Below are positions 1,197 through 40,576 of a stretch of DNA of 64,000 nucleotides, in pieces (position 1 is the first letter of the stretch; each line of letters begins with the position of its first letter). The stretch is from Myxococcota bacterium (lineage in GTDB: Bacteria > Myxococcota > UBA727 > JABDBI01): contig JAZKCZ010000002.1 of NCBI GenBank assembly GCA_040387835.1, positions 247,074-311,073 on the forward strand, written 5' to 3'. The position numbers and the translations under genes are program-made. The notes under the pieces were generated by a model, which searched no databases, was not told where the DNA came from, and was given only the letters and a program-made list of their open reading frames with translations.

Positions 1197-1682
1197 ATGA
1201 CCATCAATCCCACGGTTTACATTCACCCCAGCGCCCAAATTATGGGGGATGTTGAGATTGGTGCTCACAGCAGCATTTGGCCCCTGGCGGTTTTGCGCGG
1301 AGACATGGGCAAAATTATCATTGGCGCGAATACCTCTATTCAAGACGGCACCGTATGCCATGCCACCCATGGCTTAAGCGAAACGCGGATCGGAGATTGC
1401 TGCACCATCGGACATCGCGTCATATTGCATGGTTGCCAGGTAGAAGATGGATGCTTGATTGGCATGGGCTCCATCTTGCTTGATAACTGCTTGGTCGGTA
1501 AAGGCTCATTAGTTGGAGCGGGAAGCCTAATTACAGCCAATTTTCAGATCCCACCGGGATCATTGGTGATGGGAACTCCTGCCCGTGTGATCCGGCCTTT
1601 AAATGAGCGAGAACAAGGCATCGTGGCTGCTGGATGGCCAATTTATGTTGAAAACGCTAAAAAATACATGACTGGTGTATAA
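1197..1682 (+). CDS. gamma carbonic anhydrase-like hexapeptide-repeat protein
   Basis: This is a 161-residue left-handed beta-helix protein of the gamma-class carbonic anhydrase (CaiE/PaaY/YrdA) family. It has the family motif RGD near residue 35 and the sequence IGANTSIQDG. Three histidines sit where the zinc ligands are expected: one in CHATHG and two in GHRVILHGC. Repeating I/V-G hexads run through the middle, and a C-terminal helix ends the chain. Whether it hydrates CO2 or acts on another substrate cannot be told from sequence. It follows the DUF192 lipoprotein by one base and precedes the response regulator by seven. Confidence 0.9.
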   Translation: MTINPTVYIHPSAQIMGDVEIGAHSSIWPLAVLRGDMGKIIIGANTSIQDGTVCHATHGLSETRIGDCCTIGHRVILHGCQVEDGCLIGMGSILLDNCLVGKGSLVGAGSLITANFQIPPGSLVMGTPARVIRPLNEREQGIVAAGWPIYVENAKKYMTGV

Positions 1683-1689
1683 TCATAAG

Positions 1690-2409
1690 ATGGAAAAGGG
1701 AGATGTGCCTTCAATTCTAATTGTGGATGATGAAGAATTGCTGCGGTCAATGCTTGTGCTCAATTTTGAGAACCAAGGTTTCAAAATTTTTCAGGCAGAC
1801 AACGGTAAAACTGGGCTCGAATTACTTCAGCAACATCCAGAGATTGACCTAGTTCTCTCTGATATTAGAATGCCGCTCATGGACGGCATCGGCATGATTC
1901 AGGCTTATAAAAAGATAAATAACGAAGTTCCAATTTTCATGATGATGACAGGGTATAGCGACTTGTCGCCCGAAGAAATATACGACTTTGGCGCCAACGC
2001 CCTCTTTCAAAAGCCTTTTAACCGCGGGCAAATTAACGAGGCTGTCAAAGCAGCCCTTGCGCCGAAAGCTATGTTATGGACTCAAAAGCCAGAGTACAAA
2101 GAAAAGACCGTTTTGCAAGAACTGAACCTCAAAGACATGGCATCCCTGTCTTTGGGCAGAGGCGGACTATTTGTCCCCACCAAAGAACGCTTTCCCCAAG
2201 TTGAAACGCCGGTGAATACAAACATACATTTCGAAAACGGCGAATCTATGGAATTAACTGGACTCGTACGGTGGGTAAGAAAAACTGCTACCAGTCAATA
2301 TCCAAGCGGCTACGGGCTTGAGATTACCTACGCAGATCCTGAAAGCAAGGCAAGGTTGCTGCCTCAGATTCAAAGCTCCAAGTATATTCCTTTTATCCCC
2401 AAATGCTAA
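1690..2409 (+). CDS. response regulator: receiver domain plus PilZ-like C-terminal domain
   Basis: The N-terminal ~120 residues form a CheY-type receiver with the acidic pair DDEE, the phosphoacceptor Asp in VLSDIRMP (residue 58 from this start), Thr in MMMTGY and Lys in QKPF. The C-terminal ~110 residues (LSLGRGGLFVPT, GLVRWVRK, GYGLEI) resemble PilZ domains, whose usual ligand is cyclic di-GMP; the canonical RxxxR motif is not obvious, so ligand binding is uncertain. A GTG at 1675 in the same frame overlaps the preceding gene; the ATG at 1690 is preferred because the receiver fold begins right after it. No histidine kinase gene is nearby. The stop interlocks with that of map in four bases. 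Confidence 0.88.
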   Translation: MEKGDVPSILIVDDEELLRSMLVLNFENQGFKIFQADNGKTGLELLQQHPEIDLVLSDIRMPLMDGIGMIQAYKKINNEVPIFMMMTGYSDLSPEEIYDFGANALFQKPFNRGQINEAVKAALAPKAMLWTQKPEYKEKTVLQELNLKDMASLSLGRGGLFVPTKERFPQVETPVNTNIHFENGESMELTGLVRWVRKTATSQYPSGYGLEITYADPESKARLLPQIQSSKYIPFIPKC

Positions 2410-3194
2410 ACCGCCGTCCCAGGCAAGGTCAAAATCTCTACACCGGTTTCAGTTACTAAAATGGTGTGTTCAAACTGGGCCGACAGCTTATTGTCTTTGG
2501 TAACCGCGGTCCATTCGTCGTCTAACATTCGTGTCTTCCAAGTGCCTTGGTTAATCATCGGCTCAATAGTGAAAGCCATACCCGGTTGCATGCGCACGCC
2601 TTTGCCTCGTTCGCCAAAGTGAAACACTTGAGGCGCAGTATGAAAATTTTTGCCAATGCCGTGACCAACAAACTCTCTGACTACCCCATAGCCAAAACTT
2701 TCTGCATATTCCGCAATGGCTGCACCAATATCGCCTAGCCTTTTACCTGGTGCTACTTCGGCAATGCCAAGCTGCAAACATTTCTCGGTCACTTCCACCA
2801 GCTGCCGCGCTTGTTTGGATGGCGTGCCGACAAAGAATGTCCTTGAGGTATCCCCGTGGTAACCATCCAAGATCAAAGTGACATCAATATTGATAATATC
2901 CCCTTCTTTCAAAATCTTTTTGGTGGTGGGAATACCATGGCAGACAACTTCATTCACGCTAGTGCAAATTGATCGAGGGTACGGCGGGCAACCACCGGGC
3001 GCATAGTTAAGCGGTGCGCTGCGAGCACCACGTTCTCTGGTCCAACGTTCGGCTTCATCGTTAATCGCTTGGGTCGTAACGCCCGGTGCAACCATTTTAC
3101 CGAGATGCACCAGCAACTCACCGGCCAGCTTGCCGACGCGGCGCATTTTTTCAATTTCGCTGGTAGACAGCAATATAATTGGTTCCGAACTCAT
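2406..3194 (-). CDS. map: methionine aminopeptidase, type I
   Basis: This enzyme removes the initiator Met from nascent proteins. The 262 residues show the pita-bread fold of type I enzymes with the complete dinuclear metal site: D104, D115, H178, E211 and E242, plus H86 in the substrate pocket (motifs CHGIPT, NIDVT, GYHGDTSR, GHGIG, IEPM, FEHT). The N-terminus is about 10 residues longer than in E. coli. The start codon overlaps the stop of the adenosine deaminase-like gene as ATGA, so the two are likely translationally coupled. Confidence 0.97.
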   Translation of the reverse strand: MSSEPIILLSTSEIEKMRRVGKLAGELLVHLGKMVAPGVTTQAINDEAERWTRERGARSAPLNYAPGGCPPYPRSICTSVNEVVCHGIPTTKKILKEGDIINIDVTLILDGYHGDTSRTFFVGTPSKQARQLVEVTEKCLQLGIAEVAPGKRLGDIGAAIAEYAESFGYGVVREFVGHGIGKNFHTAPQVFHFGERGKGVRMQPGMAFTIEPMINQGTWKTRMLDDEWTAVTKDNKLSAQFEHTILVTETGVEILTLPGTAV

Positions 3195-4201
3195 ACGATG
3201 AAAGACGCCTTTTTCGAGATCTCAAAACAAGTTTTGACTTCTTCTGGGGTTAAAATATTATTATCAAGCAACAATAAACTCTCTTGTGCCATGTCTGTGT
3301 TCAACAAATATGGCCCATCCGTGTTGATTGTAAATGGGATTTTCCAATATTTAAACCTGCCCAGCACTTCTCCCAGCTCCTTCAAGTCCTTAACGGCTTG
3401 AGTATAAAGATTAGAAGTAGGACAAATCTCTAAGACACAACCTGAGTCTGCCAGCATTTTTAACGCTTCTTCGCTATACGCAGCTTGAATGCCATGACCG
3501 ATACGGTCTGGCCTTAAATAACGCAACGCGGCAATCACACCCGCGGCCCCGGTGTGCTTGGTTTCGCCGGTGTGCAAAGTTGTCTTAAGACCAGCATCCC
3601 TTGCTCTTTGGAACAACTTTTCATAGCGAGGCACATCCTGCAGGGATAACTCTAAGTTGTGACTTTCTGGTCCTGCCAGATCGATGCCTAAAACGCCTCT
3701 ATGAGCGTACTTAATTGCCTTTTCTAAGATAATCTCGTTTTGCTCGTAATCAAATTCTCTGGCTAAACAAAACAGCAAGCAGGCTTTAACACCGTATTCT
3801 AAGACGGCCCGGTCCATCCCTCTTAAAGCAGCATGTATAATATGATCCAAATCCCGCTCACCGCCTAGATTTCGCTTCATGGGGTTAAAACGCAGCTCAA
3901 TTTGCTCGACCTTGGAAGAGCGGTACTCTTTGCAGATAATCTCATAAACAGAACGCTCAACAGCTGCTGGTGAGCTTTGAATCCGCTCTGTCCACTGATG
4001 CATAATCTTCAGATAATCATCGAGATTTTTGACCGTGTCCTGCTTGGCAGTCACCAAATCGACAAAGTCCCAGTAAGTTTTAACCGGCAGTTTAAAGCCT
4101 TGCTCATGTGCAATGCTGAACAGCACATGAGGCGCGACCGCGCCCCCGACATGGATGTGTAAATCGATGAGGGTATCAGGCAGTCGTGGATCTAAGTGCA
4201 T
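3191..4201 (-). CDS. adenosine/aminofutalosine deaminase-family metal hydrolase with altered active site
   Basis: This 336-residue TIM-barrel amidohydrolase belongs to the adenosine deaminase family. Zinc and catalytic residues are present: H15 and H17 (DLHIHVGG), H210 and E213 (LHTGE), H236 (RIGHG) and D295 (NTDGP). The residue after the metal ligand, normally Asp in adenosine deaminases (the second D of TDDP, which contacts the purine), is Gly here, and HxDG is HVGG. Substrate specificity is therefore open: adenosine, adenine, aminodeoxyfutalosine or another amine are all possible. The gene is 14 bases from the DoxX-like gene upstream and overlaps map by ATGA downstream. Confidence 0.85.
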   Translation of the reverse strand: MHLDPRLPDTLIDLHIHVGGAVAPHVLFSIAHEQGFKLPVKTYWDFVDLVTAKQDTVKNLDDYLKIMHQWTERIQSSPAAVERSVYEIICKEYRSSKVEQIELRFNPMKRNLGGERDLDHIIHAALRGMDRAVLEYGVKACLLFCLAREFDYEQNEIILEKAIKYAHRGVLGIDLAGPESHNLELSLQDVPRYEKLFQRARDAGLKTTLHTGETKHTGAAGVIAALRYLRPDRIGHGIQAAYSEEALKMLADSGCVLEICPTSNLYTQAVKDLKELGEVLGRFKYWKIPFTINTDGPYLLNTDMAQESLLLLDNNILTPEEVKTCFEISKKASFIV

Positions 4202-4214
4202 GAAGCACGATATA

Positions 4215-4580
4215 CTATTTCTCGTAGCTGCTCAATATTAAAGCCCCGCCAATCAATCCCAGGTCTTTTAGCATCGAAATCAGGGGCATCGGCATGTTGG
4301 CTCCGGCAAGAATGCTTGGAACATGCACGCTCAAAATAACCACAGCCATAAAGATGATTAAGCAGTAGCAAGCCCACTTCACATAGCGATTAGCTAAAAT
4401 AAGCAGTCCGCAAAGCAGCAAAGCGACCCCAGTTAAATAAACCCAAAAAACAGCGGCCGGCATAAAGCTTGGCACCATCATAGCCATCGAGTCCGCCATC
4501 ATCAAATGGTTTAAGCCAAATATGATAAATGGAATGGCATAGATTATCCGACCCAGCGTGTAACAGAGTGTGTTGTTCAT
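4215..4580 (-). CDS. DoxX-like four-helix membrane protein
   Basis: This 121-residue protein consists almost entirely of four hydrophobic segments (about residues 8-28, 38-60, 66-86 and 96-115), beginning with GRIIYAIPFIIFGLNHL, which resembles the start of DoxX/DoxD-like proteins. The function of the family is poorly defined; some members act in thiosulfate or redox stress metabolism. It lies between the sctV-type gene (33 bases upstream) and the deaminase (13 bases downstream), so it is probably part of the same transcript. The family assignment rests on pattern only. Confidence 0.7.
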   Translation of the reverse strand: MNNTLCYTLGRIIYAIPFIIFGLNHLMMADSMAMMVPSFMPAAVFWVYLTGVALLLCGLLILANRYVKWACYCLIIFMAVVILSVHVPSILAGANMPMPLISMLKDLGLIGGALILSSYEK

Positions 4581-4613
4581 AGCGCTGAGCGTATTTCAGG
4601 ACCTCTATGAAAA

Positions 4614-6812
4614 TCAACGCTGCTGCAATGCAATTCGTGCCACAGGCTGAATATTCATATCTGAACTCAGCTCTTGATAGCTCACCACTGCCAAATGCGG
4701 AAACTCGATTTCCACCAGTTTCCGCAAGTAGCGCCTGATTTCTTGAGTGGTCAGAATCACTGGTTGCTGAGCAGTCGCTGGCAAATTGCCAATTTCAATT
4801 CGAATTGCGTCTAGAATATCTTGCGTCACTTCTGGCTCCAAAGCCAAATAGTTTCCTGAAGGGCTTTTTTGGATACCGGCGTTGATGGTCTCTTCCAGCG
4901 GCGGGTCCAAGAGATAAACCACCAATGTATTTTGACCGCCCGTATATTTAAAGCTGATATATCGCTTCAACGAGCTTCGAACATGTTCGGTCAACATCAC
5001 AGAATCTGTTTCGTGCGGGCCCCACTCTGCCAAGGCTTGTAAAATGGTGCGTAAATCGCGCACCGAGATTTCCTCTTCGACCAAGCGCTTTAGAATATCC
5101 GTCAGTTGGAACAAGTTAACTGCTTTCGGCACAACTTCTTTGACCAGCGCTGGGAAAGCTTGCTCCAGCTGATCCAGCATGTTTTGCACTTCTTGAATGC
5201 CTACAAACTCAGGAGCCGTTTTGCGAAGGCATGCCGACAGATGCAAGACCATATAACTGGCAGCATCCCAAGTGGTGAGCCCAGCTTGCTCTGCAAGTTC
5301 CTGTTTCGAATTAGATATCCAAGCACAAGGCACCCCGTTGGCCGGATTATGCGCCGTAACTGCGTCAATACCCAAAAGCTTCAAGCGTTCTGGGGTATCG
5401 TTCACCAAGCACTGACGCGGGTCAACCGAGCCGGTCGCAACCGGAATTTCATTAACAAGAATCGAGTAGCTGCTCGGGCCCCCTGAACCATCGCTGCCAC
5501 GCACCCTGATTCCGGGATAACGAATGCCAAGCTCATAGAACATGCCATCACGCATCATTGGGATAAGCTCAGCCAAGAAGTTCGAGCTATCATCAACCAA
5601 TGGAATGATATCTGAGGCAACCTCCAAAGCGATCGGGGTAACCACCGGCATCATTTTGGCAGTTTGACCTTCCTGCGCCTTCGCTTTTTGCAACGCGACT
5701 TTCTTTTCTTTTTCTAACTTTTGCTCACGTTTACCGACGATGGCGTCCATCTCAGCAACATTCGCGCCGCCGCCCGCCAATGCTGGACTTTTAGAGCGGT
5801 ACAGGCCGTAGGCGATACCACCAACGATCATACCAATAATGGTAAAGGGTAATCTTGGCAGGCCAGGAATCTGCCCGACCAATGCAATAAATCCACCGGC
5901 AATGGCAAACGCTTTGGGCTGGGCCAGGACCTGCGTCGCGACTTCTTTCCCAAGATTACTGTTTTCCTCACCTGAGTTCACGCGTGTTACCACCAAACCA
6001 GCGCACACTGACATGAGCAAAGCGGGAATAATACTCACCAAGCCGTCCCCTACCGACAAAATCGAATAGGTGTGAATGGCTTCTTCAACAGACATGCCTT
6101 TCTGCAAAACGCCGACAGCGATACCCGCCAAAATATTCATGGCGAAAATGATAATACCCGCAATGACGTCCCCTTTAACGAACTTCATCGCACCATCCAT
6201 CGCACCAAATAGCTGGCTTTCGCGGCTTAAATCACTTCGCTTTTTACGAGCGGTATCCAAATCAATGGAGCCATTACGTAAATCAGCATCGATGCTCATC
6301 TGCTTTCCTGGCATCGCATCCAAAGTGAACCTGGCGGCTACTTCCGCCACGCGCTCCGAACCTTTAGTGATAACCAACATGTTAATCAGCATGAGCAGCA
6401 AGAAAATCACAAGACCAACAACGAAATTACCGCCCACCGCGAACTCACCGAATGCGGTGATCACGCTCCCTGCATCAGCATCCAATAGAATTAGCCGAGC
6501 GGTGGCAACGTTTAAACCAAGTCTAAAAAGCGTAACCACCAGCAAGATGGTGGGGAACGAAGACAGATGAAGCGCATCAGGGATATAAAGAGAAACCAGC
6601 AACATCACCATGGCGATCGAAATGCTGGTACATATAAGTAAATCTACGATAAAAGTCGGGATCGGAATGATGAGCAAGGTCATCACCAAAATAACCAACA
6701 GCGCCAGCCCAACGTCCGCGTAACGCTTCAATAACTCGTTTATATTGCCTTGCAGCAAGAGATCTACAATTCCACCCATGTTTCGCAAGATAACATAAAA
6801 ACAGCCCCACAT
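4614..6812 (-). CDS. type III secretion/flagellar export gate protein (SctV/FlhA, FHIPEP family)
   Basis: This 732-residue protein is the large export-gate subunit that forms a nonameric ring in injectisomes (SctV) or flagella (FlhA). The N-terminal half has about eight membrane helices and the family signature (RLGLNVATARLIL, then RFTLDAMPGKQMSID). The cytoplasmic half contains a linker rich in K/E/Q followed by the ring-forming domains (SYSILVNEIPVATG, PRQCLVND, VSVRDL-like ISVRDLRTILQALAEWGP). The cytoplasmic insert with NPANGVPCAWI looks closer to injectisome SctV than to FlhA, but this is a judgement by eye. No other export, flagellar or injectisome gene lies in the window, so it is an orphan here. 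A second ATG at 6779 is an alternative start; neither has a strong ribosome binding site. Confidence 0.88.
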   Translation of the reverse strand: MWGCFYVILRNMGGIVDLLLQGNINELLKRYADVGLALLVILVMTLLIIPIPTFIVDLLICTSISIAMVMLLVSLYIPDALHLSSFPTILLVVTLFRLGLNVATARLILLDADAGSVITAFGEFAVGGNFVVGLVIFLLLMLINMLVITKGSERVAEVAARFTLDAMPGKQMSIDADLRNGSIDLDTARKKRSDLSRESQLFGAMDGAMKFVKGDVIAGIIIFAMNILAGIAVGVLQKGMSVEEAIHTYSILSVGDGLVSIIPALLMSVCAGLVVTRVNSGEENSNLGKEVATQVLAQPKAFAIAGGFIALVGQIPGLPRLPFTIIGMIVGGIAYGLYRSKSPALAGGGANVAEMDAIVGKREQKLEKEKKVALQKAKAQEGQTAKMMPVVTPIALEVASDIIPLVDDSSNFLAELIPMMRDGMFYELGIRYPGIRVRGSDGSGGPSSYSILVNEIPVATGSVDPRQCLVNDTPERLKLLGIDAVTAHNPANGVPCAWISNSKQELAEQAGLTTWDAASYMVLHLSACLRKTAPEFVGIQEVQNMLDQLEQAFPALVKEVVPKAVNLFQLTDILKRLVEEEISVRDLRTILQALAEWGPHETDSVMLTEHVRSSLKRYISFKYTGGQNTLVVYLLDPPLEETINAGIQKSPSGNYLALEPEVTQDILDAIRIEIGNLPATAQQPVILTTQEIRRYLRKLVEIEFPHLAVVSYQELSSDMNIQPVARIALQQR

Positions 6813-6873
6813 ATTCTTAAAGAAACGCTCTTAGTTGACAGCCCATAGGCAAAGTGGTTTACACACAGGCACT

Positions 6874-8961
6874 ATGATGAATACCTATGCCCTGATTCTA
6901 GCTTGCGGCGCTTTAGCCGTCATATATGGTCTTTGGATGGTTCGCACCGTTCTTGCAGCCCCTGCAGGGAACGAAGCAATGCAAAAAATAGCATTAGCCA
7001 TTCAAGAAGGCGCCAAAGCTTATTTAAATCGCCAATATCGCATGATTGCCATGATTGGCGTTGTGATATTCGTTGCTCTGACTGCCCTGCTTGGCGTTTA
7101 TGTCGGCGTCGGCTTTTTAATTGGAGCCATCCTGTCTGGCGTGGCCGGTTATGTGGGCATGAATATTTCGGTTAAAGCCAACGTTCGAACAGCAGAAGCT
7201 GCTCGCAGAGGCCTTCAACCCGCGCTTGATATCGCTTTTCGTGCAGGTGCGATTACCGGTCTATTGGTTGTTGCTTTAGGAATTTTGGGCATCACCGGTT
7301 ACTATCTAAGCCTGCGCTCATTAGAATTGCCTACGCGCGACATTATGGAAGCGTTGGTTGGCCTTGGCTTCGGCGCTTCGTTAATTTCGATTTTTGCTCG
7401 TTTGGGCGGCGGTATCTTCACCAAAGGCGCAGATGTTGGCGCTGATATGGTTGGCAAAATTGAAGCTGGAATTCCAGAAGACGACCCACGAAATCCAGCG
7501 GTAATTGCTGACAACGTCGGTGATAACGTTGGCGATTGCGCTGGTATGGCTGCAGATTTATTTGAAACTTATGTGGTGACCCTGGTTGGTACCATGCTTT
7601 TGGCCGGTATTTATTTCAGCGGCAGCGACTTAGAACTGCTGATGACTCTGCCAATGCTCATTGGTGGCGTTTGCGTTCTCGCTTCCATTGTTGGAACTTT
7701 CTTTGTAAAACTTGGCAAATCCAATGACATCATGAAAGCTTTGTATAAAGGTTTTATGGTTACTGCTGTTTTGTCTGCAATCGCGATTGCCGTTATCTGC
7801 AACTATTGGGTTGGCCTTGATACCGTGTTTGTCGGCACACAAATGACTTTCAATGGCCTGAACTTGTTCTATTGCTGCTTAACAGGTCTTGTGGTTACCG
7901 GCCTATTAATGCGCATTACTGAATATTACACCATGACCAACTACCGGCCAGTGCAAAGTATTGCTAAGTCCTCAATGACAGGTCACGGAACTAATATTAT
8001 TCAGGGTATCGCTGTTTCGATGGAAGCAACTGCTTTGCCTGCGATTGTGATTAGTGCGGGGATTTTGCTTTCTTATCAAAACGCCGGACTATTCGGTATT
8101 AGCGTTGCAGCAACCACCATGCTTGCCTTGGCCGGGATGATTGTTGCGCTGGATGCTTACGGTCCAGTGACAGACAATGCTGGTGGTATTGCAGAAATGT
8201 CCAACATGCCTCCTGAAGTCCGTAAAACGACTGATATTTTGGATGCCGTTGGCAATACAACCAAAGCGGTAACCAAGGGTTACGCGATCGGTTCAGCTGG
8301 GTTTGCATCGCTCGTTTTGTTTGCAGCTTTTATTGAAGACGCTAAGCACTACTTCCCTCAGTATACGTTGGTGTTTTCTTTGGAAGATGCCTATGTGGTG
8401 ATCGGCTTGTTCTTGGGTGGTCTATTGCCTTATTTGTTTGGTGCCATGAGCATGATGGCCGTTGGCAGAGCAGCTCAATCCGTTGTGATTGAAGTTCGGC
8501 GTCAATTCAAAGAAATTCCAGGTATCATGGAAGGCACAGGACGGCCTGATTATGGCAGAGCGGTTGATATTTTAACCAAAAAGGCCATCTCTGAAATGGT
8601 CTTGCCAAGTTTGCTGCCTGTGGGTGCACCTATCTTGGTTTACATGGCTATGTGGGCCAGCGTTGGTCAGAGAGAAGCATTGATTACTCTTGGCTCCATG
8701 CTCCTTGGCCTTGTTGTTACCGGCTTATTTGTAGGCTTATCCATGACTTCAGGCGGCGGCGCTTGGGACAATGCTAAAAAACATATCGAAGATGGTTTCT
8801 TTGGCGGCAAAGGCTCGGAAGCTCATAAAGCTGCTATCACTGGCGACACTGTGGGTGATCCGTACAAAGATACCGCTGGTCCAGCCATCAACCCGATGAT
8901 TAAGATCGCGAATATCGTTGCGCTGCTTCTTTTGGCCATATTAGCTAAATTTGGCGCTTAA
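6874..8961 (+). CDS. hppA: membrane-bound H+-translocating pyrophosphatase, K+-independent type
   Basis: This ~695-residue, 16-helix membrane pump couples pyrophosphate hydrolysis to proton export. The substrate-binding motifs are intact: [25 protein letters not shown] with the following [11 protein letters not shown], and the C-terminal [13 protein letters not shown]. At about residue 460 the sequence reads [10 protein letters not shown]; Lys (rather than Ala) at the position after GNTT, with Thr three residues later, marks the K+-independent H+-pumping subfamily. The start is placed at the first ATG of MMNTYALIL because earlier in-frame codons give a polar, non-family extension. The stop overlaps the next start as TAATG. 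Confidence 0.96.
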
Positions 8962-15049: not shown

Positions 15050-16007
15050 TCGTACTCAAATTGCAATCCAAGATATTTTAACACGGCACAAGTCTACGGG
15101 TGAGCCCGTCGATCGGCTAATCCGAGAAATCGCTCGCGGCAGAGGGCTTGGCTCTAGAGAGCGCCGGGAAGTTGCCGACGAAGTATTCTCAGGCCTCAGG
15201 CAAAAACCCTGGCCTGAATGGTTTAATAAACGTCTACAAAAAGAATACGGCACCAACTACCCTGCCCTCGAGCACTCTCTTAGGCAACGCGCAAAGCCAG
15301 TCTTAGCAGTCGATATTCGGCAGAGTACTGCCCAGGCGATCGGTCAAAAATTGCAGGCCTTGGCGGTACCCTTCACGCCTTCGAAATTGTCATCTCGCGC
15401 TTTGATTTTAGAGACAGACTCTGTCGATTTGAAAGACTTGCCCGGCTGTTGGTGGATGGATGACGGCAGCCAATACATCGCAGAGCAAATCAAAGGAACA
15501 CCGGAGGACCGGATATTAGATCTCTGCGCAGGCGCAGGCGGTAAAACGCGCATTTTGCTAGCTACGGGTGCAAAAGTCACCATGGCGGACAATAACGATA
15601 AACGCCTGGCTCATATTGATGGCGTTCAACGCGTCGTTGCGGACGGTCGCACATTTAAATCCAACTCCCAGTTCGATTGGATTCTAATTGATGCGCCATG
15701 CTCAGGTACCGGCACTCTCAGGCATGCTCCAGATCTATTCGGACGGTTAAAAGAAGAAGACCTGAAGCAATATGTTAAGCTGCAAAACGAGCTTGTCGCC
15801 AATGCAAAAACCCTCCTCAGCGAAACAGGCAAACTGATTTATGCCACCTGCTCTTTACTGGAAGAGGAAAACCATCGAAGCTTCGAGGAACTTGAACTTG
15901 TCAGCAGCAGGCAACTTTTACCCTCTGTAGAGGGATGTGACGGTTTTTACATTGCCGTATTTACAAAGCAACCGGAACGATACAACCAATCGGCGCCGTC
16001 GAAGTGA
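15039..16007 (+). CDS. RsmB/NOP-family RNA m5C methyltransferase, short form
   Basis: This S-adenosylmethionine-dependent enzyme methylates cytosine in RNA, probably 16S rRNA. It has the cofactor loop LDLCAGAGGKTRILL, the motif IV sequence DAPCSGTG and the motif VI sequence YATCSLLEEEN; the two cysteines in these motifs are the release and nucleophilic residues. At about 322 residues it is shorter than E. coli RsmB (about 430), and its N-terminal NusB-like region is reduced. The start is taken as TTG at 15039 because AGGA at 15026-15029 is well placed; an upstream TTG (15003) lies deep in glpX. Its 3' end overlaps the convergent secreted-protein gene by 47 bases. Confidence 0.85.
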   Translation: MAFNRTQIAIQDILTRHKSTGEPVDRLIREIARGRGLGSRERREVADEVFSGLRQKPWPEWFNKRLQKEYGTNYPALEHSLRQRAKPVLAVDIRQSTAQAIGQKLQALAVPFTPSKLSSRALILETDSVDLKDLPGCWWMDDGSQYIAEQIKGTPEDRILDLCAGAGGKTRILLATGAKVTMADNNDKRLAHIDGVQRVVADGRTFKSNSQFDWILIDAPCSGTGTLRHAPDLFGRLKEEDLKQYVKLQNELVANAKTLLSETGKLIYATCSLLEEENHRSFEELELVSSRQLLPSVEGCDGFYIAVFTKQPERYNQSAPSK

Positions 16008-16317
16008 TTTTGACAAATCCTGGTGCGCACTTGCCGTCATCTCCTGGCCCAGCGCAAGATCCCTTTTCTTGTCCAAACATGGCGACGCCATCCATTTGTA
16101 AAGAGACAAATGAACCTGGGCTTCCCCAACCGGAAATAAAGTATGGTGTCACTGAAACACAAAGCGATCGTGTGGGCCCCCGCATGGGTTGATTGGGTCC
16201 GGTTAATTGATTGATTGCATCGGCAGGGGTCTTGATAGCCGCTAAACCACTCGCACTGGACAAAGCCAGTAAGCTTGCTGCAGAAATTGACTTTTTGATC
16301 TTGGAACTAATTGTCAT
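15961..16317 (-). CDS. small secreted protein, unknown function
   Basis: A 118-residue protein starting with a clear Sec signal peptide (KIKKSISAASLLALSSASGLA, cleavage after about residue 27). The mature part has four cysteines and a Gly/Pro-rich character (GWGSPGSF, GPGDDGKC). A strong ribosome binding site (TAAGGAG) sits six bases before the ATG, which supports it as a real gene despite a 47-base overlap with the 3' end of the convergent methyltransferase gene. I do not recognise a family. Confidence 0.65.
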   Translation of the reverse strand: MTISSKIKKSISAASLLALSSASGLAAIKTPADAINQLTGPNQPMRGPTRSLCVSVTPYFISGWGSPGSFVSLQMDGVAMFGQEKGSCAGPGDDGKCAPGFVKITSTAPIGCIVPVAL

Positions 16318-16352: not shown

Positions 16353-17405
16353 ATGAAGTTTTGGCCGTACGAAGAAGTTTTATTCAAAGCCACTGATCTC
16401 AGTAGAGGCCAATTTGCATTAGAATGTCCTTGGCTCACGAGCGAGTTCGAAGTGGTGCCAAACTCAAAAAACTTCCAGGCTTTAACGAGCCATATCGATA
16501 AACCAACGCTAAGCCCAGACCTTGCAGAGCTTTGGGCTGGCCTGAGTACCCTACCCATCGTGTACCACCTTCCCCGCCTTTACCCGTTTGGAACCGATGC
16601 ACATTTTGCTAAAGAAGTGCTCGCCTGCGAGTCGCCTTCTAGCTGCGCACAAAGTTTAGGCATCGAAGCTGACGCGTTTTTTGAGAAAGAGTGGACATGG
16701 GATCACGATGCAATTTTAAAAATGGCTGCCATAGGAGATTGTGCTTTCTATGACCCTATAACTTTATTAAGTATTGCGAGACGATTTCACTATTTGGACT
16801 GCTCAGATAATAAAATCGATGAGCTCTATCAAAAAGTTGCATCCATACAAGATATCCCAACGCGAAAGCAGGCGCTCGCCACGCTCGTCAGACAAAATCA
16901 CTATGTAACTGAGCAATGCCAATCTTCGCTGGAGCCGGCCATGGATCTCGCCGGGTCTGCAGCTCAAGACCTAGCGTCATTCATGAACGCTGAACGAGGT
17001 CATGACAAACTTTTAGGGCGCAGCCTTTTAGCTTTAAATGCGCAGTCGCCAAGTTGGGCCGCACTTGATGCCACGCAGGCACTGATGAACATACTGCGAG
17101 TTTCAGCCGAAAAAAACTTTTTAGCCTTCTGCATCAATCTGGACTTTTTTGAAAAGCCTCAATTTAAAGAGAAAGATGGCCTGGCAGAGCTATTGGAGAA
17201 CTCCGCCGAATTTACCGCGGCTAAATCACTTCATATTCATAAAAAGATAAACGATGAAGGCGGGCACGAAAGTGTACCTCTGACGCTGCTTACGCACATG
17301 CGACCCGTTGACAAAGTTTATGCACATCAAGCATTGTGCCTAGCAGAATTAGCCTCTTTTGCGATCGCACAAATTCCCTATCAACTTGAATCATGCCTGT
17401 TTTAA
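16353..17405 (+). CDS. probable heme-oxygenase-like diiron (HDO-type) protein in the pabA-pabC operon
   Basis: This 350-residue protein is mostly helical and was not recognised by name. Its C-terminal half resembles the iron-containing redox enzymes of the heme-oxygenase-like diiron fold: an AERGHDKLL helix (E214, H217) and a second His/Asp/His cluster in SLHIHKKINDEGGH (H294 or H296, D301 or E302, H305). The last cluster is spaced slightly differently from the usual HxxxDxxH. AGGAGA before the ATG at 16353 fixes this start; the frame is open further upstream. The stop overlaps pabA by 13 bases. The context suggests a link to p-aminobenzoate or folate metabolism, but this is inference. Confidence 0.55.
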   Translation: MKFWPYEEVLFKATDLSRGQFALECPWLTSEFEVVPNSKNFQALTSHIDKPTLSPDLAELWAGLSTLPIVYHLPRLYPFGTDAHFAKEVLACESPSSCAQSLGIEADAFFEKEWTWDHDAILKMAAIGDCAFYDPITLLSIARRFHYLDCSDNKIDELYQKVASIQDIPTRKQALATLVRQNHYVTEQCQSSLEPAMDLAGSAAQDLASFMNAERGHDKLLGRSLLALNAQSPSWAALDATQALMNILRVSAEKNFLAFCINLDFFEKPQFKEKDGLAELLENSAEFTAAKSLHIHKKINDEGGHESVPLTLLTHMRPVDKVYAHQALCLAELASFAIAQIPYQLESCLF

Positions 17406-17950
17406 TGATCGAAAATCACGACTCTTTTAGTTACAATATTGTTGACTACCTAAAGCGTATCAGCCCGTCCGTTGAGGTTCGCAGCCACCTAGAAACACCT
17501 GAACTTACAGGGATAACGCATTTGATATTGGGCCCCGGGCCTGGATCGCCAAAGACTTCAGGTCTCTTAATGCAATGGCTTGATGCTGCCGTTAAAGCAG
17601 AAATTCCGACCCTAGGGATCTGCTTAGGCCACCAAGCCATTGGCGAATATTTCGGCGCAAACTTGATGAGAGCCTCTAGGGCCATTCACGGGGAGGCACA
17701 TGCTATCACGCATTGCGGCGACAGATTATTTAAAGGCCTCGCAAATCCAACGAGAGCTGCACGTTATCACTCACTTATCTTAGCCAATTTAGGCCCAAGT
17801 CTTCGCATTGATGCCTGGACTGGTGACGGCGAAATTATGGCTATTTCTCATGTCCAACTGCCGATGTTAGGCGTGCAGTTTCATCCGGAAAGCTTTTTAA
17901 GCGAACAAGGGCTGGAGCTGTTAAATAACTTTTACCAACTCTATGCTTGA
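17393..17950 (+). CDS. pabA: aminodeoxychorismate/anthranilate synthase glutamine amidotransferase subunit
   Basis: This class I glutamine amidotransferase supplies ammonia to PabB (or TrpE). The 185 residues carry the oxyanion loop GPGPGSP, the nucleophile Cys in GICLGHQ and the His-Glu pair in QFHPES. PabA and TrpG cannot be separated by sequence alone; the directly following pabC (8-base overlap) favours p-aminobenzoate synthesis as the main job, with possible dual use. The chorismate-binding partner gene, pabB, lies 21 kb away at 39440-40576. Confidence 0.92.
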   Translation: MPVLMIENHDSFSYNIVDYLKRISPSVEVRSHLETPELTGITHLILGPGPGSPKTSGLLMQWLDAAVKAEIPTLGICLGHQAIGEYFGANLMRASRAIHGEAHAITHCGDRLFKGLANPTRAARYHSLILANLGPSLRIDAWTGDGEIMAISHVQLPMLGVQFHPESFLSEQGLELLNNFYQLYA

Positions 17951-18542
17951 AGTTTTTACAACCATCATGGTGCTCAAAGACGGTCCTTTATTTTGGAAGG
18001 CCCATCTAGGGCGGTTGTGGCAACATGCTGTCCTCGCCGATATTAAATACCAAAGCTTCGAGTTTCCAATCGGCGAGTGCCTTAAACTAATAAAGCTAAG
18101 CCATAAGCCGTTTTTACTTCGTATCAGCCTAAATCAAGATGGTTACACGCTTGGCACGAGAGCTTGCGAAGAGGCCCAAACGAAGCCAGTGAAAGTCTTC
18201 ATTTCAGATCAAATTGTGATATCAAATATTAAAACCAATCAAAGGGCCGTTTACGACGAAGCTCTCCGTCAAGCACAACAGCATCATGCATTCGAAGGTC
18301 TCCTGTTAAACCAAAGTGGTTATGTGGTCGATGGCAGCAAAAGTAGCCTCATCCTACGTCGGAAAAAAACATTAATAAGCCTGGCAGGCGGCCTTTGCGG
18401 AATTACTCGCCAAATGATTTTGCAAAAAGCAAAGCTAGAGGGCTTTGAAATTGCAGAGGATTACCTAAGGCCTAAAGACCTAAAAGGTGAACTGTACTTG
18501 GCGGGCACCGGTGTAGGCTTAGTGAGATGCGTTTGTATTTGA
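17943..18542 (+). CDS. pabC: aminotransferase class IV, probable aminodeoxychorismate lyase
   Basis: This PLP enzyme likely eliminates pyruvate from aminodeoxychorismate to give p-aminobenzoate. The protein is short (199 residues; the family is commonly 260-290) because the N-terminal domain is reduced. Seen are the PLP-lysine region (IKTNQRAVYDEALRQA), the segment EGLLLNQSGYVVDG and the phosphate-binding CGITRQMIL. It overlaps pabA by eight bases. Branched-chain or D-amino acid aminotransferase activity is an alternative for the fold, but the operon argues for pabC. Confidence 0.85.
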   Translation: MLEVFTTIMVLKDGPLFWKAHLGRLWQHAVLADIKYQSFEFPIGECLKLIKLSHKPFLLRISLNQDGYTLGTRACEEAQTKPVKVFISDQIVISNIKTNQRAVYDEALRQAQQHHAFEGLLLNQSGYVVDGSKSSLILRRKKTLISLAGGLCGITRQMILQKAKLEGFEIAEDYLRPKDLKGELYLAGTGVGLVRCVCI

Positions 18543-39439: not shown

Positions 39440-40576
39440 ATGCCAAAAAACTACCCATTAGACTCACAAATGCAAGCCCTCTTACACTTTGAGGATGTGG
39501 AGATTTACGCAAGAAATCCCAGCTCTTATCTGGAAGTTAAGAGCGGGAAACTATTTAGAGATAACGTCGTGATTGGGGATGCGCTTGAGCTTTCAAAAGC
39601 GCTTGAGCTTGCGCCGTCGAAAAATTTTTTTCCGGCGTGGGTAGGATTTATTGGTTATGAGTATGCACGGCATTTTGGGCTCGTGACACATGAGCCGGAT
39701 GGTAATTTTCCGGAAGCGGCGTTTATGCTGTTTGATGGGCCCAGCCAGCGTGGCGCTGAGCCCTTTCCCGATTTTGCCGAGGCAAAATCTCCCTCTCCCA
39801 CGATTGGGAGAGGGGAATTTATGCGTTCTGTTACGCTTATCCAAGAAGAAATTCGTGCGGGGGATGTTTATCAGGTCAATTTGACTCGGCAGTTTGAAGT
39901 ATCTCAGCGATCGATCGATCCTTTTACTTTCTATAACTACCTCAAAACAAACAATCCGAGTCCGTTCATGGGCATTCTGCAAGGTCCAGATTGGTCCATC
40001 GTATCTGGTAGTCCAGAACGGCTGTTTCGCCTGCAAAATGGCACCATCTCCACGCAGCCCATCGCTGGTACCAAACCCAATATTCCTGGTGCGCGTGAAC
40101 AACTGTTGAGTAACCCCAAAGAACTCGCTGAACATGCCATGTTGGTCGATTTAATGCGGAACGATCTGGCGCGAATTTGCAAAACAGGCTCTGTCAAAGT
40201 TCCCAAGCCTTTCGATATCGAAGCTTACCGCCACGTGCTGCATCTCGTCTCAACGGTCACCGGTGAAACCGACGCACCCTTGGGCGATATCATGTGCGCC
40301 ATCTTTCCCGGTGGAACCATTACCGGCGCTCCTAAAGAAAGCGCGATGCAATCGATCGCCCGGCATGAACTCATTCCACGCGGGCCCTATACCGGCTCGT
40401 TTGGCTACGTATCCTCGGGCCACGGTGTCGATTTCAACATTCTCATCCGCAGCTTGTTCATTGGGAGAAATAAAACTTATTTCTCCGCAGGCGCCGGCAT
40501 TGTCATCGGCAGCGATCCTCAGTCTGAGCTAGAAGAAACCGAGCACAAAGTCGCGCAATTCCGAAATTTTGCATAA
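39440..40576 (+). CDS. pabB: chorismate-binding enzyme, probable aminodeoxychorismate synthase component 1 (PIAGT type)
   Basis: The 378-residue protein belongs to the anthranilate/aminodeoxychorismate synthase large-subunit family (chorismate-binding fold: GDVYQVNLTR, VSGSPERLF, LVDLMRNDLARI, FPGGTITGAPK, ADAGIV-like SAGAGIVIGSDPQSE). It carries PIAGT, not PIKGT, at the active-site lysine position. The PIAGT motif is typical of TrpE but also defines a known PabB subclass that works without a covalent lysine intermediate. At 378 residues it is short for TrpE (about 500), which favours PabB. TrpE cannot be ruled out. The ATG abuts the ctaA start. Confidence 0.85.
   Translation: MPKNYPLDSQMQALLHFEDVEIYARNPSSYLEVKSGKLFRDNVVIGDALELSKALELAPSKNFFPAWVGFIGYEYARHFGLVTHEPDGNFPEAAFMLFDGPSQRGAEPFPDFAEAKSPSPTIGRGEFMRSVTLIQEEIRAGDVYQVNLTRQFEVSQRSIDPFTFYNYLKTNNPSPFMGILQGPDWSIVSGSPERLFRLQNGTISTQPIAGTKPNIPGAREQLLSNPKELAEHAMLVDLMRNDLARICKTGSVKVPKPFDIEAYRHVLHLVSTVTGETDAPLGDIMCAIFPGGTITGAPKESAMQSIARHELIPRGPYTGSFGYVSSGHGVDFNILIRSLFIGRNKTYFSAGAGIVIGSDPQSELEETEHKVAQFRNFA

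What the first reader, a model, noticed from the sequence alone, without database searches (positions are those of the whole stretch)
16353..18542. Probable heme-oxygenase-like diiron protein embedded in a pabA-pabC operon
A helical protein with AERGH and HIHKKINDEGGH clusters overlaps pabA by 13 bases and is followed by pabC. The heme-oxygenase-like diiron fold includes chlamydial CADD, which makes p-aminobenzoate by its own route in organisms lacking pabABC. Here a fold-related candidate sits with classical pab genes, raising the question of a second p-aminobenzoate source, a regulator or a modification step.
Basis: partly seen in the sequence, partly recalled or inferred. Interest (0 to 1): 0.6.

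Follow-up and report, generated by a model that had tools for sequence, protein, structure and literature searches.

The report
Orphan diiron-oxidase-like gene heading pab operon
The gene in front of the p-aminobenzoate genes does encode a heme-oxygenase-like diiron enzyme, but it is not the self-sacrificing p-aminobenzoate maker of Chlamydia and close relatives lack it there, so it is most likely a lineage-specific passenger enzyme with an unknown oxidation reaction.

Summary
A 350-aa ORF (16353-17405 +) with AERGH and HIHKKINDEGGH overlaps pabA by 13 bp, and pabA overlaps pabC by 8 bp. No library profile recognises it, but tblastn, profile and fold searches place it in the heme-oxygenase-like diiron oxidases (HDOs). 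Its predicted ligands are E214xxH217, E267 and H296-x3-N300-x4-H305. They align without gaps with those of MboA, the mangotoxin acetylenase, except that Asn replaces the MboA ligand Asp176. All five relatives found without selecting for it share that Asn. The pABA-synthase idea is not supported: no score to the CADD family model, different ligand spacing, no Lys at the sacrificial position, and a genome that already has pabA, pabB, pabC, folP and HPPK. True CADD-family genes occur in two genomes of the same order, both without a detected chorismate-binding enzyme. Linkage to pab is not conserved: same-family genome G004 has glpX-rsmB-pabA-pabC with nothing between rsmB and pabA, and no other family member has the gene. 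Overlaps are ordinary here (20 of 41 same-strand pairs). Best reading: a lineage-specific HDO at the head of a housekeeping pab operon, oxidising an unidentified carboxylate or peptide substrate. Action on pABA is possible but unsupported.

The parts
16353..17405 (+). HDO-like protein, 350 aa; C-terminal HO-like domain from about residue 135; N-terminal ~130 aa unassigned
   Evidence: ORF; tblastn to 'iron-containing redox enzyme' proteins; profile match to PDB 3dde and MboA; Foldseek to CADD/UndA/TenA folds
16989..17003 (+). AERGH, predicted metal ligands E214 and H217 (ExxH)
   Evidence: invariant in alignment A2; aligned with MboA E86/H89
17151..17153 (+). predicted metal ligand E267
   Evidence: invariant; equivalent to MboA E143
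17232..17267 (+). HIHKKINDEGGH, predicted ligands H296, N300, H305 (H-x3-N-x4-H)
   Evidence: invariant; aligned with MboA H172-x3-D176-x4-H181, with Asn for Asp
17393..17950 (+). pabA, glutamine amidotransferase of aminodeoxychorismate synthase
   Evidence: PF00117 1.1e-43, TIGR00566 over cut-off; Cys and HPES motifs
17943..18542 (+). pabC, aminodeoxychorismate lyase (short, 199 aa; the only class-IV aminotransferase found in the genome)
   Evidence: PF01063 2.6e-22; single match in G000
15961..16317 (-). 118-aa orphan ORF, divergent from the HDO gene, N-terminus reads like a signal peptide; lies in the same extra segment
   Evidence: absent at the G004 locus
39440..40576 (+). pabB (aminodeoxychorismate synthase component I), unlinked, PIAGT instead of PIKGT
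   Evidence: best NCBIfam hit TIGR01824 PabB-clade2, below its cut-off; orthologues in same-family genomes, one of which (G005) has no TrpE-like protein

Best explanation
[quoted passage not shown] Inferred, not shown: it binds two irons (or a labile or single iron), activates O2, and oxidises a substrate whose carboxylate docks on the metal, by desaturation or hydroxylation of an amino acid, short peptide or similar acid. It is a lineage-specific gene inserted, with a divergent orphan ORF, between rsmB and a housekeeping pabA-pabC pair, and is probably co-transcribed with them. It does not make pABA, and its place in the operon most likely reflects gene packing rather than a shared pathway.
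For: HO-like fold: tblastn to annotated iron-containing redox enzymes (E 1e-3), profile hits 3dde 1.5e-6 and MboA 1.3e-4, Foldseek best hits HO-like (CADD TMt 0.60-0.68); the better-modelled Moorena relative gives E 7e-6 and TMt 0.78. Ligands: invariant E/H/E/H/N/H, ungapped against MboA. Lineage-specific insertion: G004 has glpX-rsmB-pabA-pabC with rsmB overlapping pabA, and none of seven same-family genomes has the HDO. Complete classical pab/folate set. Relatives sit with transporters, peptidases or RiPP-like peptides, not pab genes.
Against: No close homologue was found, so conservation at 18-25% identity carries the argument. The model's N-terminal 130 residues have pLDDT mostly below 50 and no coordinates were available to measure ligand distances. 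An operon-head position with a 13-bp overlap is also what a functionally linked gene would show. Same-family genomes are few and some are incomplete.
Confidence: 0.6

Rival explanations
1. The HDO acts on pABA or an aminodeoxychorismate-pathway intermediate (for example arylamine N-oxygenation or ring hydroxylation) and is co-expressed with pabA-pabC to supply its substrate.
For: Operon head with a 13-bp overlap. In same-family genome G001 a different diiron enzyme, an AurF-type p-aminobenzoate N-oxygenase (PF11583, 6e-38), directly precedes and overlaps a pabAB fusion and pabC in a cluster-like operon, showing the logic exists in this family.
Against: Linkage absent in all other relatives. 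pabA and pabC here appear to be the only folate copies, so pABA would be drawn from folate. No AMP-ligase or exporter was read beside the gene. pabB is 22 kb away.
Confidence: 0.15
2. It is a second, self-sacrificing pABA source of the CADD type.
For: CADD is among the top structural matches; a Tyr (Y159) lies within about two residues of the aligned sacrificial Tyr.
Against: No hit to TIGR04305 even at E 10. CADD-family proteins of the same order have E-x6-H, H-x3-D-x2-H and a Lys 10 residues after the second Glu; here E-x2-H, H-x3-N-x4-H and Leu277. Classical pab genes are present. True CADD occurs where chorismate-binding enzymes were not found.
Confidence: 0.03
3. It is a peptide-modifying HDO whose substrate could be the divergent 118-aa exported protein or another cellular peptide.
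For: MboA oxidises the C-terminal Arg of a tripeptide and VarO dehydrogenates Arg in a RiPP (PMC13185094, PMC6511847). The Moorena relative has a predicted beta3-alpha3 RiPP-recognition-like N-domain and follows double-glycine leader peptides. The orphan ORF lies in the same extra segment.
Against: The N-domain of this protein does not match the relatives' N-domains by profile comparison (probability 0.1%). The orphan ORF has no leader motif, and its N-terminus reads as a Sec signal.
Confidence: 0.12
4. It is catalytically weak or inactive and serves as a regulator or bystander.
For: Asn replaces a carboxylate ligand; a pseudo-enzyme paralogue exists in this group (Moorena upstream copy lacks the ligands).
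Against: Five of six ligands and the neighbouring Asp218 are kept, and the Asn is shared by relatives that look intact.
Confidence: 0.1

Closest known systems
MboA, mangotoxin HDO acetylenase (PDB 9YPI; PMC13185094)
   Same: Ligand spacing ExxH, E, H-x3-[D/N]-x4-H, Asp after the first His, ungapped profile alignment around the ligands
   Different: Asn in place of Asp176; Phe210 where MboA has its proposed base Tyr82; extra N-terminal 130 aa; no MboB-type reductase or peptide ligases read beside the gene
PF14518 'iron-containing redox enzyme' proteins of Rhodococcus, Enterobacter, Tistrella and Moorena
   Same: 18-26% identity, same invariant ligands including Asn in the active-type copies
   Different: P0001 itself does not reach PF14518; different neighbourhoods; relatives' N-domain not matched
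CADD / NePabS self-sacrificing pABA synthases (TIGR04305; PMC11965152)
   Same: HO-like fold, distant profile similarity
   Different: Ligand spacing, sacrificial Lys, family score and genomic setting all differ
VarO, thiovarsolin HDO dehydrogenase (PMC6511847)
   Same: heme-oxygenase-like protein acting on a peptide, relative of MboA
   Different: Sits in a RiPP gene cluster; only the literature was consulted, no sequence compared here

Membership tests
HDO superfamily | Heme-oxygenase-like fold | tested here: met
   profile hits to 3dde and MboA; Foldseek. Model of the protein itself is only moderate: core pLDDT 70-86
HDO superfamily | 3H/3C (or 3H/4C) dimetal ligand set | tested here: not met
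   3 His and 2 Glu kept, sixth position is Asn300 instead of Asp
HDO superfamily | binds two metals and activates O2 | not testable with these tools
   needs biochemistry
CADD-type self-sacrificing pABA synthase | scores to TIGR04305 | tested here: not met
   no hit at E 10; true members in G008/G010 score 274-293 bits
CADD-type self-sacrificing pABA synthase | sacrificial Lys (CADD K152) | tested here: not met
   column is Leu277
CADD-type self-sacrificing pABA synthase | sacrificial Tyr (CADD Y27) | tested here: inconclusive
   Y159 lies within two residues; alignment uncertain
CADD-type self-sacrificing pABA synthase | replaces pabABC in its genome | tested here: not met
   pabA, pabB, pabC all present
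MboA-like HDO | ligand spacing ExxH, E, H-x3-x-x4-H | tested here: met
   spacing identical
MboA-like HDO | Asp as the ligand between the last two His | tested here: not met
   Asn300
MboA-like HDO | acts on a peptide C-terminus with a dedicated reductase | not tested
   no reductase or peptide ligase adjacent by reading; activity needs biochemistry
pab-linked functional module | neighbourhood conserved across genomes | tested here: not met
   absent in G001, G004, G005, G007 pab loci

The most novel reading that the evidence does not exclude
A subclass of HDOs uses an Asn in place of the Asp ligand (3H/2C/1N), and the member in this pab operon oxidises pABA or its precursor, giving an HDO counterpart of AurF next to folate-type pab genes.
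Probability: 0.08. Interest if true: 0.6.

Novelty: new variant of a known kind. Interest (0 to 1): 0.3.

Why it matters
HDOs are a fast-growing source of unusual O2 chemistry, and only about a dozen are characterised (PMC13108848). This sequence adds an Asn-for-Asp ligand variant shared by several natural-product-type relatives and not mentioned in the review read here. It also warns against reading a function from operon position: in the same order of bacteria, true self-sacrificing pABA synthases and classical pab genes appear to replace each other, while this HDO does neither job as far as sequence shows.

Tried and rejected
Ferritin-like/AurF reading of the two ExxH motifs: dropped after tblastn and profile hits to HO-like proteins. 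CADD membership: rejected. Recent foreign gene by composition: GC 0.463, GC3 0.446 and codon score -1.18 are ordinary for the window. Overlap as evidence of function: rejected, half of same-strand pairs overlap. N-domain as RiPP recognition element: plausible in the Moorena relative, not supported here. Genome-contig scan with the single protein and both viral scans found nothing. Promoter scan uninformative. Literature searches found no report of an Asn-ligand HDO, within the open-access library only.

Full report
The ORF, both motifs, the 13-bp overlap with pabA and the following pabC are all there. PabA and PabC carry their family domains and catalytic motifs. The overlap alone is weak evidence of a functional link, because 20 of 41 adjacent same-strand gene pairs in this window overlap.

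What it is. Pfam, NCBIfam and PHROGs give no match at all. tblastn against plasmids finds annotated 'iron-containing redox enzyme' proteins (PF14518) at about 25% identity, best E 1e-3. Aligned with these and three Tistrella domains, the residues E214, H217, E267, H296, N300 and H305 are invariant. A profile of that alignment finds solved HO-like proteins: 3dde at 1.5e-6, and the characterised enzyme MboA at 1.3e-4. MboA's ligands are Glu86, His89, Glu143, His172, Asp176 and His181 (PMC13185094), and each aligns without gaps to the invariant set, with Asn for Asp176. Asp218, matching MboA's optional ligand Asp90, is also kept.

The AlphaFold2 model of the protein is moderate in the core (pLDDT 70-86) and poor in the first 130 residues. 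Its best PDB matches are HO-like proteins: CADD, 3dde, UndA, TenA. The Moorena relative models well and gives CADD, PqqC, HrmI, FlcD and UndA at E below 0.001.

It is not a CADD-type pABA synthase. TIGR04305 gives no score. Two genomes of the same order, G008 and G010, carry true CADD-family proteins (274-293 bits), and no chorismate-binding enzyme was found in either. Aligned with them, our protein has E-x2-H rather than E-x6-H, H-x3-N-x4-H rather than H-x3-D-x2-H, and Leu277 where the sacrificial Lys sits; the sacrificial residues are from PMC11965152. The window's genome has three chorismate-binding enzymes, read from sequence as a TrpE-G fusion, an isochorismate-synthase-like protein beside a UbiE/MenG-like gene, and PabB at 39440-40576, plus folP and HPPK. 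G005, 99% complete, keeps the same PabB without a TrpE-like protein, which supports the PabB assignment.

Linkage to pab is not conserved. In G004 of the same family the order is glpX-rsmB-pabA-pabC, with rsmB overlapping pabA; here the HDO and a divergent orphan ORF lie between them. In G007 and G005, pabA follows a nucleoside-phosphorylase-like gene, and pabC lies apart. G001 has a pabAB fusion preceded by an AurF-type N-oxygenase. None of the seven same-family genomes has a detectable HDO of this kind. In the other phylum genomes that appear in both sets of searches (G019, G023, G037, G042), HDO-like and pab matches were not within 20 kb of each other. This favours a gain in one lineage, though some of these genomes are incomplete.

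How it probably works. By analogy with the substrate-bound HDO structures, where the substrate coordinates Fe1 (PMC13108848), I expect O2 activation at a metal site formed by the six residues, and oxidation of an acid or peptide docked on the iron. Only the residue pattern and fold are supported here; metal content, substrate and reaction are inferred. The Asn may weaken or alter one metal site. It occurs in Rhodococcus, Enterobacter and three Tistrella domains, found without selecting for Asn; Moorena was found with a pattern that required it. HDOs of G058 and G154 have Asp in that place.

Limits. Homology rests on 18-26% identity; no close relative was found in the genome or viral collections, and metagenomes could not be scanned. 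The name of the organism is not given; the phylum looks like Myxococcota from genome sizes, which I did not test.

Noticed in passing
L048 (G001:C5:48000-61000), 1271-7921: In a same-family genome a pabAB fusion and pabC follow an AurF-type p-aminobenzoate N-oxygenase (PF11583, 6e-38) and an AMP-ligase/DAHP-synthase-like fusion, an apparent nitro-aryl natural-product cluster.
   Followed up: partly
L049 4015-6870 and L051 1645-6633 (Moorena): Two HDOs, the first lacking the ligands, follow double-glycine-leader, proline-rich peptides. The active-type copy is predicted to carry a beta3-alpha3 RiPP-recognition-like N-domain, suggesting a peptide-modifying HDO pair.
   Followed up: partly
G008, G010 (L055, L054) versus G000-G007: Within one order, CADD-family pABA synthases occur where chorismate-binding enzymes were not found, while the window's family has classical pab genes: apparent replacement of one route by the other.
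   Followed up: partly
window 39440-40576: PabB has PIAGT instead of the Lys-bearing PIKGT motif, as do its orthologues in G004, G005 and G007; G001's pabAB fusion has PIKGT.
   Followed up: partly
window 15961-16317 (-): Orphan 118-aa ORF with a signal-peptide-like start, no homologue in 18 relatives, present only in the segment that also holds the HDO.
   Followed up: partly
L007/L050 (Tistrella plasmid pTM3): Three HDO domains in two adjacent genes, one protein with two domains in tandem.
   Followed up: no
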